Made by a program: the position numbers and the translations under genes
In this document: in pieces, positions 1 to 54,503 of the stretch
Numbering within the stretch: position 1 is the stretch's first letter
Layout: each line of letters opens with the position of its first letter
NCBI RefSeq assembly: GCF_041261205.1
Contig: NZ_JBGCCH010000039.1
Coordinates: 1 to 64,000 of the forward strand
Length of the DNA stretch: 64,000 bases
Source: Catenulispora sp. MAP5-51
GTDB lineage: Bacteria; Actinomycetota; Actinomycetes; Streptomycetales; Catenulisporaceae
Reading direction: 5' to 3'
Notes under the pieces: generated by a model
What the model was told of the DNA's origin: nothing
What the model saw: the letters and a program-made list of their open reading frames with translations, nothing else
Databases searched by the model: none

Positions 1-369
1 GGCGCTCGGGTGCTCGCAGAGTTCGGGGATGCCCCCGACCGCTACACCGATGCCAAAGCCCGCCGCAACTACGCCGCGACCAGCCCGATCACCCGCGCCT
101 CGGGCAAGAAACGCGTGGTCGCCGCCCGCTACGTGCACAACGACCGGCTCATCGACGCCCTGATGTTCCAGGCGTCCAAGGCCATCGTCGTCTCGCCCGG
201 CGCCCGCGCCTACTACGACAAGCAGCGCGAGCGCGGCATCGGCTACAACGCCGCCCTGCGCCAGGTCGCCAACCGACTCGTCGGCATCCTGCACGGCTGC
301 CTGAAACACGGCACCCTCTACGACGAGCACACCGCCTGGACAAACCAGGCCAAACAAACTACTGCTTGA
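1..369 (+). CDS. IS110-family transposase, 3' end (runs off window start)
   Basis: The frame is open from base 1, so the 5' part lies outside the window. The visible part is the C-terminal domain of IS110/IS116/IS902 (Transposase_20 type) recombinases. It shows the usual run of Tyr, Thr, Ala-Lys and Arg-rich residues, the 'SPITRASGKK' segment with the conserved Ser-Gly, and a C-terminal 'GYNAALRQVANRLVGILHGCL' helix. IS110 enzymes are DEDD recombinases that excise and insert the element through a circular form. The stop is at 367-369. Whether the upstream part is intact cannot be judged. The next 700 bases hold two decayed IS5-type genes, so this end of the window is an insertion-sequence hot spot. 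Confidence 0.85.
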   Translation, partial: GARVLAEFGDAPDRYTDAKARRNYAATSPITRASGKKRVVAARYVHNDRLIDALMFQASKAIVVSPGARAYYDKQRERGIGYNAALRQVANRLVGILHGCLKHGTLYDEHTAWTNQAKQTTA

Positions 370-3319: not shown

Positions 3320-5287
3320 TCACCGCGGGTACTGACCGAACACCTGATGCAGGATGTCCATGTAGACCCCATGGCCGCTGGGACTGGCCCAGGCGGTGGC
3401 CGACTCGGCGGCGGTGCCCTCGCCCCACTCGTTGTACGAGATGATCAGCTGGAACGGGTCTCCGGAGCGGGCGACCGTGGTGACGTCCTGCTTGAAGCGC
3501 CCGGGATCGCGCGGAACAGCCGGGGTCTGCGTGTCGTACTTCCAGAAACCGGGTGAGGTCACGGCCGAGTAGCCGTTCTGGACGTCGAGGTCGTCCACGT
3601 ACTGGTGCCAGCCCTGAGGCTGGTCGGCGCACTGGCGGTAGCCGCCGAAGACTTTGAGGACCACGTAGTAGTGCGCGGTGCGGTTCGCCTCGGCCCAGCG
3701 GGTGGCCATGCCGCAGCCGTCCGAGCCGTCGGCGTAGACGAAGATCACCGGCAGGCCGTTGATGTGCAGCCACGCCTTCTGGTCGGAGTACTTGCGCAGA
3801 TAGACCAGGTCATCGGCGATCTGGGTGGACGAGGGATCCCCGTAGGCCTCCTGCTCGTAGTACGCCGACCAGGAGAAGCCGAGCTTCGCCGCCTCGGCCA
3901 TCAGCAGCGGCGTCCGCTTGTCCTCGCGCCGCCCCCGGCCCCACCACGAGATGATCCCGGCCTGGAGCCCGCCGTACTGCATGTCCCGGATCTGGCGGTC
4001 GACGGTCGACACCTGGTCGACGCTGTAGTCGCCGGCCGAGGGAGTGTAGTGGCTGCCGTTGTCGGCGAAGTTCTCGGGATACCAGGGGTAGTAGAAGGCC
4101 GCGCGCACCGGGAGCGCGGTGTTGACGATCGTCGAGGAAGAGGCGGAGGAAGGGATCGAGCTCGGCTGCGTCGGCTTGGGCGTCGTGGCGGGCTGGGACG
4201 CCGGCGAGCTCGCGCCAGGGCTCGACGATGCGGACGAACCCGGCGTCGGCGGAGCCGTAGTGGTGGTCGTGCCGTTGCTGTCCGCGGCTCGCGCCGGGGA
4301 AGCACTCGCGTACCGGATGCCCACTCCCCCGGCGACCACGGCGAGCGCCACGAATCCTGCGACGGTCGCCTTGCCCGCGGCGGACAAGGCGGTCCAGTGG
4401 ACCATGCGATGGCCCCGCCCGGCCGCCTGACGCACGCCACGGTTCGCGGCCCGCCGCCCGAGAGCAGCCGATCCGGAGCCCGCACCCTTCATCGTCAGCG
4501 CCGTCACCGCCACGCGCAGTCCCACTGCGACCGGCACCAGCGCCAAGCCCGCCAACAGGAACTCGGCGGGAACCAGATCCTGCTGAAGCCCGCCGCAGGA
4601 CGGACACTCCCGCACATGACGCGCGATGCGCTTGCGCCACAGCCCCTCGGGCCGGCCGTCCCAGCGCGCGCAAACCCCGGCCAACTCCGGGCAGCGCGGC
4701 GTGGCCGCCAGCGCACGCACCACCGAGCGCGCCGTCTCCAGCCGCGCCTTGGTGCGGTGCACGAGGACGGCGGCCTTCGCCGGGCTGACGTCCATCGCGG
4801 CTGCCAGCTCGGACCGCGTCAGATGCCCGGCGGTCTCCAGCCACCACAGGGACAGCAGCTGTCGGTCTTCGGCGTCCAGCCAGCGCGTGGCCCGCGCCAC
4901 TTCCAGCCGCTGCTCGCTCAGGCCCAGCGCGGCTATGGTCAGGTCGACGAAGTCGGCCCCGGGATCGGCCAGCGCGTCGGCTTCATACTGTGCGGCATCC
5001 GGCGCCGACCGCCGCCGGCTGTCGTGGCGGCGCACCTCGCGCATCGCGATGGCCACGAGCCAGGAGCGGAAGGCCTCGGGATCGCGCAACTGCGGCAGGT
5101 CGCGTACGGCTTGGAACATGGCCTCCTGGACCACGTCGTCCACCTCGACGGAGCGCCGCAGCGCCCGCCCGACCACGTTGTAGACCAGCGGCAGATACGC
5201 GCCGATCAGCACATCCAGGGCCCGGCCGTCGCCGGCCCGGGCCGCTTCGACCGTCCTGGCGTCCGGCGCCCGGTTCGCTTCCGTCAT
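3320..5287 (-). CDS. ECF sigma factor fused to membrane anchor and extracytoplasmic GH99/GH71-like hydrolase domain
   Basis: One uninterrupted 655-residue frame starting at ATG 5287. Residues about 20-90 are sigma region 2 (VDDVVQEAMFQAVRDLP) and about 125-190 are region 4 (LTRSELAAAMDVSPAKAAVLVHRTKARLE). Residues 200-240 hold a Cys/His cluster (C-x4-C, then H-x3-C-x2-C) like a zinc-finger anti-sigma module. Hydrophobic segments follow near 245-265 and 305-325, then a Ser/Thr/Pro linker (about 330-385). Residues about 390-655 resemble the GH71/GH99 clan of alpha-glycanases and endomannosidases (AAFYYPWYPENF, IISWWGRG, VIFVYADGSDG, IISYNEWGEG with a candidate Glu). The sigma part would sit in the cytoplasm and the hydrolase outside. 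Such C-terminally extended ECFs are known in Actinobacteria. The substrate and activity of the outer domain are inferred. Confidence 0.85.
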   Translation of the reverse strand: MTEANRAPDARTVEAARAGDGRALDVLIGAYLPLVYNVVGRALRRSVEVDDVVQEAMFQAVRDLPQLRDPEAFRSWLVAIAMREVRRHDSRRRSAPDAAQYEADALADPGADFVDLTIAALGLSEQRLEVARATRWLDAEDRQLLSLWWLETAGHLTRSELAAAMDVSPAKAAVLVHRTKARLETARSVVRALAATPRCPELAGVCARWDGRPEGLWRKRIARHVRECPSCGGLQQDLVPAEFLLAGLALVPVAVGLRVAVTALTMKGAGSGSAALGRRAANRGVRQAAGRGHRMVHWTALSAAGKATVAGFVALAVVAGGVGIRYASASPARAADSNGTTTTTAPPTPGSSASSSPGASSPASQPATTPKPTQPSSIPSSASSSTIVNTALPVRAAFYYPWYPENFADNGSHYTPSAGDYSVDQVSTVDRQIRDMQYGGLQAGIISWWGRGRREDKRTPLLMAEAAKLGFSWSAYYEQEAYGDPSSTQIADDLVYLRKYSDQKAWLHINGLPVIFVYADGSDGCGMATRWAEANRTAHYYVVLKVFGGYRQCADQPQGWHQYVDDLDVQNGYSAVTSPGFWKYDTQTPAVPRDPGRFKQDVTTVARSGDPFQLIISYNEWGEGTAAESATAWASPSGHGVYMDILHQVFGQYPR

Positions 5288-5394
5288 GCTCGCTTCCTTC
5301 GCTGCCGCAGACTTCTCGTCGTGCTGTCATAGAAGGGAGGGCCGCGGCGCGCCCGAGCATTGCACAAACTTCGTGGCCGACTTCGTTTCTGTCC

Positions 5395-53674: not shown

Positions 53675-53768
53675 CGCCGCTGAGCTGTAATACTCCCGAT
53701 GCCGCCTGGTTTGAAGCCTGTCCCCTGGGTATCCGGCCGCCGCCCGGCACGAAGGAGGTTGTGATCCC

Positions 53769-54503
53769 GTGACACGCTTGCACGAACGCTTCGGCGCGCG
53801 CTTGGCCCTGACACTGTTCGTCGCGGTCCCGGCCGCCGCGCTGGCCGGCCTGATCGCGGTCGCGGTGGAGAGCGCCTGGGACCCGTTCCGTGAGCTCGAT
53901 CAGAACACCGCCACCTACCTGCACGTCCACGCGGCAGGGCATCCGCTGGTCATCAAGACCCTGCTGCGGATCTCGGACTACGGCGGCCCGACTCCCTCGC
54001 GCATCCTGATCGCGGTCCTCGCGGTGGTGCTGTGGGTACGCGGCGCGCGCCGGCTGGCGGTGTGGGCAGCCTCGACGATGATCGCCGGCGCGATCCTCGA
54101 CAGCGGGCTGAAGCTGCTGGTCGACCGGGCCCGGCCGCATCTGCCGAACCCCTTCGCGCATGCTCCCGGTGCGTCCTTTCCCTCCGGCCACTCCATGGCC
54201 TCCGCGTTGGCCGCCGGGATCATCGTCCTGGTGGTGCTGCCGCTGGTGGGCCGGGTCGGCACGATCGTGGCGTGGACGGTGGCGGGGCTGGCCGTGTTCG
54301 CCGTCGGGTACAGCCGGGTGGCGCTGGGCGTGCACTGGGTCACGGACGTCGTGGGGGCCTGGCTGTTGGCCGTCGCGCTGCTCGCGGCCACGGTGTCGGC
54401 GTTCCAGACCTGGCGCGTCGAGCACGGGCTGCGGCCGGCCCATCCGCTGGCCGAGGGCGTGGAGCCTGAGGAGTCGGAAGAGCTTTCTGGAGGTGGGGAA
54501 TGA
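53769..54503 (+). CDS. PAP2-family membrane phosphatase (first copy)
   Basis: GTG 53769, 244 residues, six TM helices. The three phosphatase motifs are complete: K-x6-R-P in 'KLLVDRARPHLPNP', P-S-G-H in 'GASFPSGHSMASALAAG', and S-R-x5-H-x3-D in 'YSRVALGVHWVTDVVG'. Such enzymes remove phosphate from phosphatidic acid, undecaprenyl pyrophosphate or related lipids outside the membrane. The acidic tail (EPEESEEL) is unusual. Its stop overlaps the second PAP2 gene (ATGA). Confidence 0.92.
   Translation: MTRLHERFGARLALTLFVAVPAAALAGLIAVAVESAWDPFRELDQNTATYLHVHAAGHPLVIKTLLRISDYGGPTPSRILIAVLAVVLWVRGARRLAVWAASTMIAGAILDSGLKLLVDRARPHLPNPFAHAPGASFPSGHSMASALAAGIIVLVVLPLVGRVGTIVAWTVAGLAVFAVGYSRVALGVHWVTDVVGAWLLAVALLAATVSAFQTWRVEHGLRPAHPLAEGVEPEESEELSGGGE

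What the first reader, a model, noticed from the sequence alone, without database searches (positions are those of the whole stretch)
3320..5287. One-protein sigma factor / transmembrane / extracellular glycanase
An uninterrupted frame joins ECF sigma regions 2 and 4, a Cys/His zinc-finger-like segment, TM segments, a Ser/Thr/Pro spacer and a GH71/GH99-like domain. A sigma factor physically tied to a surface hydrolase could couple polysaccharide recognition directly to transcription without a separate anti-sigma factor, possibly needing proteolytic release. Extended ECFs are known in Actinobacteria, but this outer domain type and the built-in zinc finger deserve attention. No separate anti-sigma gene lies nearby.
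Basis: partly seen in the sequence, partly recalled or inferred. Interest (0 to 1): 0.8.

Follow-up and report, generated by a model that had tools for sequence, protein, structure and literature searches.

The report
One-piece membrane sigma factor with glycanase
A soil actinomycete gene encodes a single protein that joins a gene-switching sigma factor, a likely built-in brake, a membrane anchor and a sugar-cleaving-type domain, so it probably senses a polysaccharide outside the cell and switches genes on inside; proteins of this kind were already predicted, but this outer domain and the promoter it appears to use are new details.

Summary
In detail: window 3320-5287 (minus strand) is one intact, conserved 655-aa gene joining an ECF sigma factor (1-190), a zinc-type anti-sigma segment (C199-H224-C228-C231), probably one membrane helix (about 306-324), a Ser/Thr/Pro linker and a GH99-like domain (389-655) with the catalytic Glu pair. 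I found six full-length homologues; 28 further relatives in a tree keep the inner part, 26 of them with CAP, AbfB or beta-helix instead (11 shown by Pfam). Such fusions (ECF52/53) are already in print as predictions, so this is a variant. New here: a promoter-like motif, TTTCTGTTAT-N18/19-YCTCC, lies before 32 of 37 sigma genes, the window's included (TTTGTGCAAT form, 5336-5368). On megaplasmids it also lies before adjacent genes for CAP proteins (4 of 4) and GH10-GH62 enzymes (2 of 2), matching the neighbouring sigma's outer domain; two of these six hits are weak. GH99-type genes sit beside alpha-1,3-glucanase or related hydrolase genes in 5 of 7 loci, though not in the window. Most likely the outer domain senses an alpha-glucan or mannan and proteolysis frees the sigma. 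Ligand, topology, proteolysis and targets are unproven; in the own genome only the self-promoter was found; no structure was obtained.

The parts
3320..5287 (-). whole gene, 655-aa sigma / anti-sigma-type / membrane / GH99-like protein
4718..5287 (-). ECF sigma factor, regions 2 and 4 (residues 1-190)
   Evidence: TIGR02937 23-185, 65.3 bits; Sigma70_r2 27-92; PDB ECF sigmas by sequence
4595..4693 (-). zinc-site residues C199-H224-C228-C231 of the built-in anti-sigma-type domain (Hx3Cx2C with a Cys as likely first ligand)
   Evidence: all four invariant in 21 of 21 rows; Hx3Cx2C in 35 of 35; zinc binding itself inferred
4502..4576 (-). hydrophobic conserved stretch LVPAExLLxxLALxPV (residues 238-262), read here as an anti-sigma helix rather than a membrane helix
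   Evidence: conserved across outer-domain types; hydropathy and charge; inference
4316..4372 (-). probable single membrane helix (about residues 306-324), N-terminus inside
   Evidence: more basic before than after in 34 of 35 proteins
4124..4312 (-). Ser/Thr/Pro-rich linker (residues 326-388)
   Evidence: sequence; relaxed dN/dS 0.41
3323..4123 (-). GH99-like domain (residues 389-655), with C525 and C553 invariant
   Evidence: Pfam 38.6 bits against a cut-off of 33; profile against 4acz E 2.2e-21; both Cys invariant in 12 of 12
3419..3430 (-). catalytic Glu pair E620 and E623 (NEWGEG)
   Evidence: invariant in 12 of 12; aligned with NEWHEG of 4acz
5336..5368 (-). putative self-promoter TTTGTGCAAT-N18-CCTCC
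   Evidence: only exact match in the 10.9-Mb own genome

Best explanation
It is a one-component, membrane-anchored ECF sigma factor. At rest the built-in zinc anti-sigma-type domain holds sigma regions 2 and 4 at the inner face of the membrane. The GH99-like domain outside binds, and may cut, an alpha-linked polysaccharide, most likely an alpha-1,3-glucan or alpha-mannan such as those of fungal walls. Binding or cutting lets proteases cut the protein outside and within the membrane, and the freed sigma transcribes its own gene and, at least in relatives, genes for proteins that act on the same kind of target. Shown here: the architecture and its conservation, the invariant zinc-type and catalytic residues, different outer domains on one inner module, a shared promoter-like motif before the sigma genes and before adjacent matching genes in relatives, and neighbouring alpha-glucanase-type genes in relatives. 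Inferred: inhibition by the zinc domain, outside location of the GH99 domain, the ligand, proteolysis, and that the motif is the promoter of this sigma.
For: Domains and catalytic pair. Intact frame under purifying selection. Invariant zinc-type residues. Charge pattern for one helix and two invariant Cys, expected of a disulfide outside. Outer-domain differences: by Pfam, CAP in 7 proteins (L007, L012; L039, L042, L044, L045, L047), AbfB in 3 and beta-helix in 1; the 7 GH99 rows form one clade of the inner-part tree, support 95/93. Motif: strict pattern before 19 of 23 sigma genes and 0 times elsewhere in 475,562 bases; matrix hits before 32 of 37 sigma genes, 15 of them training rows. Matrix hits not used in training lie before CAP genes in L044 (32.0), L045 (25.9), L043 (25.9) and L047 (16.8) and before GH10-GH62 genes in L050 (23.9) and L049 (16.3). 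GH87 alpha-1,3-glucanase, GH71/99-like or GH42-like genes beside the sigma in 5 of 7 GH99-type loci.
Against: In the own genome the exact pattern occurs only at the sigma gene; up to 2 mismatches adds one site against 1 in the control, and that site does not precede a minus-strand gene. The window's 82-kb contig holds no other relative of the GH99, GH87, GH71/99-like or GH42-like queries by tblastn. L047-L050 and L025 lack the motif before the sigma gene. Real-DNA background for the matrix is higher than the Markov control: 3 hits of 16 or more (L021, L023, L024) in 158.8 kb without a sigma gene against 0.08 expected per 95 kb, so the L047 and L049 hits are weak alone. None of the enzyme genes beside the GH99-type sigmas has its own matrix hit of 13 or more. 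No Pfam anti-sigma zinc-finger model matched. No structure was obtained.
Confidence: 0.66

Rival explanations
1. The outer domain is first of all a working surface enzyme; the sigma fusion ties its expression to something else, not to a ligand sensed by the domain.
For: 43 positions, the catalytic pair among them, are invariant across sigma-fused and stand-alone GH99-like domains; Catellatospora has the domain on its own membrane anchor without a sigma part (L006).
Against: Relatives carry a binding-type domain (AbfB) or CAP on the same inner part, which fits sensing better than one enzymatic role.
Confidence: 0.15
2. Two hydrophobic helices both cross the membrane, so the GH99 domain is cytoplasmic and acts on internal glycans.
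For: Both stretches pass hydropathy thresholds in the window protein.
Against: The loop between them is basic (+8 in the window), the first stretch is a conserved motif and scores low in L042 and L051, the linker is Ser/Thr/Pro rich, and two Cys are invariant.
Confidence: 0.08
3. The conserved TTTCTGTTAT-N18/19-YCTCC sequence is not this sigma's promoter but a site for another regulator or a housekeeping promoter that controls these genes.
For: TGTTATCGT in the Streptomyces members also fits an extended -10 TGnTAnnnT (recalled consensus); no biochemical test exists here.
Against: Two blocks at near-fixed spacing, start codon 6-7 bases after the second block in four GH99 members, presence before adjacent matching genes, and a changed first block (TGCAAT) together with a changed region 4 helix in Catenulispora (one lineage).
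Confidence: 0.2
4. The fusion is a decaying or misassembled gene with no signalling role.
For: The window copy lacks the hydrolase neighbours seen in most relatives.
Against: dN/dS 0.18 overall and about 0.1 in the folded parts; promoter block conserved with C. rubra.
Confidence: 0.03

Closest known systems
ECF52 sigma factors, SCO4117 of Streptomyces coelicolor (PMC5826349, passages)
   Same: ECF sigma + zinc finger + membrane helix + Pro-rich stretch + carbohydrate-related domain in one protein; positive autoregulation and proteolytic release proposed there
   Different: SCO4117 carries a carbohydrate-binding module (smart00776), not GH99; its proposed motif CSGYN-17-SRHA differs from the motif here; group assignment of the window protein could not be tested
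ECF53 sigma factors (PMC8999054 and PMC10766802, passages)
   Same: Predicted built-in zinc anti-sigma domain, one or two membrane helices; glycosyl hydrolase or carbohydrate-binding domains predicted for some ECF52/53 members
   Different: No GH99 domain, promoter motif or matching neighbour genes in the passages seen; the primary surveys were not held
SigI-RsgI systems of Clostridium thermocellum, above all RsgI6 with a GH10 outer domain (PMC4711584, passages)
   Same: Outer glycanase-type domain as polysaccharide sensor resembling an enzyme of the regulon; autoregulated sigma
   Different: Sigma and anti-sigma are two proteins; analogy only
GH99 endo-alpha-mannosidases / endomannanases (4acy, 5lyr) and related GH71
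   Same: Profile match E 2.2e-21 to 4acz and EW[H/G]E catalytic pair
   Different: Shorter domain; H[I/L]EPY motif replaced by YYEQE with only the Glu kept; substrate unknown

Membership tests
ECF sigma factors | sigma70 regions 2 and 4 recognised by curated model | tested here: met
   TIGR02937 65.3 bits against 42.9 over 23-185; Sigma70_r2 49.7 against 24; no Pfam region-4 hit
ECF52/ECF53 | fused zinc anti-sigma domain, membrane helix and carbohydrate-related domain | tested here: met
   (by signature and hydropathy)
ECF52/ECF53 | membership by the group's own sequence model or tree | not testable with these tools
   group models and representatives not held; Huang 2015, Casas-Pastor 2021 and Pinto 2019 not held
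ECF52 | proposed promoter motif CSGYN-17-SRHA | tested here: inconclusive
   a different motif, TTTCTGTTAT-N18/19-YCTCC, is conserved here; the published motif is called theoretical by its authors
class I anti-sigma domain (zinc type) | Hx3Cx2C signature | tested here: met
   35 of 35; likely first ligand is Cys, invariant 21 of 21
class I anti-sigma domain (zinc type) | match to a curated family model | tested here: not met
   no Pfam anti-sigma model among hits up to E 1
class I anti-sigma domain (zinc type) | binds and inhibits its sigma | not testable with these tools
   bench; the structure job did not finish
GH99 | Pfam gathering score | tested here: met
   38.6 against 33; the homologue L002 is just below, 32.7
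GH99 | EW[H/G]E catalytic pair | tested here: met
   12 of 12 keep both Glu; aligned with 4acz
GH99 | H[I/L]EPY motif (described for eukaryotic clades, PMC11025385 passages) | tested here: not met
   YYEQE at 476-480; Glu kept
GH99 | endo-alpha-mannosidase or mannanase activity | not testable with these tools
   bench only
SigI-RsgI | separate RsgI anti-sigma protein | tested here: not met
   single ORF

The most novel reading that the evidence does not exclude
A family of one-piece sigma receptors in which the outer sensor is a tethered copy or partner of the kind of protein that the sigma switches on (CAP with CAP, arabinose-binding AbfB with arabinoxylan enzymes, GH99-like with alpha-glucan enzymes), using one recognisable promoter whose first block changes together with the sigma's region 4; the Catenulispora member is the alpha-glucan/mannan version and would let a filamentous soil bacterium detect fungal walls directly.
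Probability: 0.38. Interest if true: 0.72.

Novelty: new variant of a known kind. Interest (0 to 1): 0.52.

Why it matters
[quoted passage not shown] The conserved promoter-like motif and the pairing of outer domain with adjacent genes in relatives make ligand and regulon directly testable in harmless soil actinomycetes, and would link sensing of fungal or plant polysaccharide to transcription in one polypeptide.

Tried and rejected
Frameshift, misassembly and two-protein readings were rejected on homologues, dN/dS and internal starts. Two membrane crossings were considered and set aside. A signal-peptidase-like ASASPARA stretch after the membrane helix was considered as a site-1 cleavage point by analogy with RsiV/RsiP (PMC8844934, passages), but by eye in the alignment it is kept only in the two Catenulispora proteins, so it is not claimed. 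A search for GGAAC-type ECF promoters upstream gave nothing. Targets in the own genome: none beyond the self-promoter at the stringency used, spacing fixed at 18 for the mismatch search. The numbered ECF group could not be tested. Structure: machine busy; job accepted and unfinished. Rows set aside: of the 37 loci, L030-L037 (weak sigma matches) were not analysed further except as scanned DNA; L019 and L027 were left out; L023 (partial) was left out. L017 (contig end) and L025 (frame ends early) have no readable outer domain and are labelled 'cut'. In one search the label CAP was given by default to rows not named otherwise: 7 of the 22 are shown by Pfam; the rest were judged by eye from shared C-termini or translations. 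Of the 20 plasmid records, 14 were fetched; H4 and H6 looked like duplicates of H3 and H5, and H15, H18, H19 and H20 were not fetched.

Full report
What is there. The minus strand of window 3320-5287 encodes one 655-residue protein from an ATG preceded by a GAAGGA-type ribosome site, judged by eye. Curated models find an ECF sigma factor at the N-terminus and a GH99 domain at the C-terminus above the Pfam cut-off. Each of 12 GH99-like domains taken from the window and 11 loci matches Pfam GH99 at E up to 1; 10 of 12 also match WbsX and 2 match GH71. Their profile matches the solved GH99 endo-alpha-mannosidase 4acz at E 2.2e-21, and the catalytic pair of 4acz (NEWHEG) aligns with NEWGEG, residues 619-624. 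E620, E623, E478 and two cysteines (525, 553) are invariant in 12 of 12 domains. That E478 is an active-site residue is recalled; only its alignment with the Glu of HIEPF in 4acz is.

It is one functional gene. Full-length homologues occur in Catenulispora rubra (91%), Actinacidiphila, three Streptacidiphilus and a Streptomyces megaplasmid. Between the window and C. rubra dN/dS is 0.09 in the sigma part, 0.12 in the zinc part, 0.13 in the GH99 part, and 0.32 and 0.41 in loop and linker. The window lies at the start of an 82-kb contig of a 10.9-Mb genome.

The brake and the membrane. Between sigma and membrane lies C-x24-H-x3-C-x2-C. All four residues are invariant in 21 of 21 aligned rows, and Hx3Cx2C is in 35 of 35. 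Hx3Cx2C is the signature used for zinc-type class I anti-sigma domains, in which helix 4 binds sigma region 2 (PMC7406223, passages). The conserved hydrophobic stretch LVPAExLLxxLALxPV follows the motif here, and I read it as that helix. The 15 residues before the second hydrophobic stretch are more basic than the 15 after it in 34 of 35 proteins. I therefore read one membrane crossing, sigma inside and GH99 outside. Two crossings would put the enzyme inside; this is not excluded.

Different outer domains on one inner part. Chromosomal Streptomyces relatives keep the inner part at about 60% identity but end in a CAP domain (L007 and L012 by Pfam; the others by their shared C-termini). Of ten plasmid-borne relatives scanned, one ends in GH99, five (L039, L042, L044, L045, L047) in CAP, three (L048-L050) in AbfB and one (L051) in a beta-helix. 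In a tree of 35 inner parts the 7 GH99 rows form one clade (95/93), and all labels together need 5 changes where 4 is the least possible; the labels are those described under Tried and rejected.

A promoter-like motif. Upstream of the sigma genes lies TTTCTGTTAT-N18/19-YCTCC. A strict form occurs before 19 of 23 sigma genes and nowhere else in 475,562 bases, both strands; the four misses are the window and L001 (TGCAAT instead of TGTTAT), L017 and L025. Fifteen of the 19 are closely related Streptomyces. The matrix, trained on 15 sites, scores at least 16 before 32 of 37 sigma genes; misses are L025, L047, L048, L049 and L050. In four GH99-type genes (L002-L005) the start codon follows the second block by 6-7 bases, as in a leaderless transcript. 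The first block and the region 4 helix both differ in Catenulispora, which is suggestive but a single lineage.

Candidate targets in relatives. In the 14 plasmid loci 7 non-self matrix hits score at least 16, and 6 lie before adjacent genes: CAP genes in L044 (32.0), L045 (25.9), L043 (25.9) and L047 (16.8), and GH10-RicinB-GH62 genes in L050 (23.9; a 51-residue ORF lies between) and L049 (16.3). The seventh (L051 +887, 16.2) does not precede an annotated gene on its strand within 2 kb. These four loci are the only ones in which tblastn found a CAP gene beside the sigma in the DNA held. A Markov control expects 0.08 hits of 16 or more per 95 kb and none of 20 or more, but real DNA is less kind: the 15 loci without a sigma gene (158.8 kb) hold 3 hits of 16-18.3 (L021, L024, L023) and none of 20 or more. 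So four of the six hits are strong and two are weak alone. The neighbour's kind matches the outer domain of the sigma (CAP with CAP, AbfB with arabinoxylan enzymes); signal peptides were not tested. The beta-helix gene beside L048 has no hit of 12 or more.

GH99-type neighbours. In 5 of 7 GH99-type loci GH87 alpha-1,3-glucanase (L001, L003), GH71/99-like (L003, L005, L038) or GH42-like (L001, L004) genes lie beside the sigma. None of these enzyme genes has its own matrix hit of 13 or more; in L003 and L038 they follow the sigma gene on the same strand and could be co-transcribed. The GH71/99-like label is weak (Pfam GH99 E 6e-4, below cut-off, for L038; DUF7910 only for L003). The window and L002 lack such genes in the DNA held. 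In the own genome the exact pattern is found once, at the gene itself; with 2 mismatches there is one further site against one in the control, lying at the start of a plus-strand ORF.

How it most likely works. By these data and by analogy with RsgI6, whose GH10 outer domain binds xylan with very low catalysis and resembles an enzyme of the regulon (PMC4711584, passages), the GH99-like domain senses an alpha-linked polysaccharide, the anti-sigma domain is removed after proteolysis, and the sigma acts on its own promoter and, in relatives, on matching genes. Proteolysis has been proposed for ECF48, ECF52 and ECF53 (PMC8999054, passage). That the target may be fungal wall rests on the alpha-1,3-glucanase neighbours and is inference.

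What is known. A review states that some ECF52 and ECF53 proteins have predicted glycosyl hydrolase and carbohydrate-binding domains, without experimental validation (PMC10766802, passage). So the kind is known. In the searches of the open library (listings) I saw no report of a GH99 or CAP outer domain or of this motif, but the primary surveys are not held, so earlier description there cannot be excluded. A study of GH99 evolution (PMC11025385, passages) holds no occurrence of 'sigma'.

Limits. No structure was obtained; the ECF group is untested; the chromosomes of the plasmid-bearing strains were not searched; the own genome was searched only for the exact and the 2-mismatch pattern. Every step of signalling is inference.

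Noticed in passing
L006 5361-6428: Catellatospora tritici has the same GH99-like domain (60%) on its own short membrane anchor and Ser/Thr/Pro linker, with no sigma part; none of the long ORFs beside it looked like a sigma gene by eye.
   Followed up: partly
L024 5866-7740: A Jatrophihabitans MAG has a GH99-like domain in one ORF with a phosphoesterase family domain.
   Followed up: no
L004 5831 and L005 4722: Two Streptacidiphilus sigma genes carry a second copy of the promoter-like motif about 100 bases upstream of the first.
   Followed up: partly
L048, L049, L050: AbfB-type sigma genes lack the motif before themselves although two of them have it before the adjacent enzyme gene; they may use another promoter.
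   Followed up: no
window 53754-53786: The only 2-mismatch copy of the self-promoter in the own genome lies in the same window but overlaps the start of a plus-strand ORF; judged chance.
   Followed up: yes
window 10-369: The contig begins with what looks by eye like the end of a transposase ORF; not tested.
   Followed up: no
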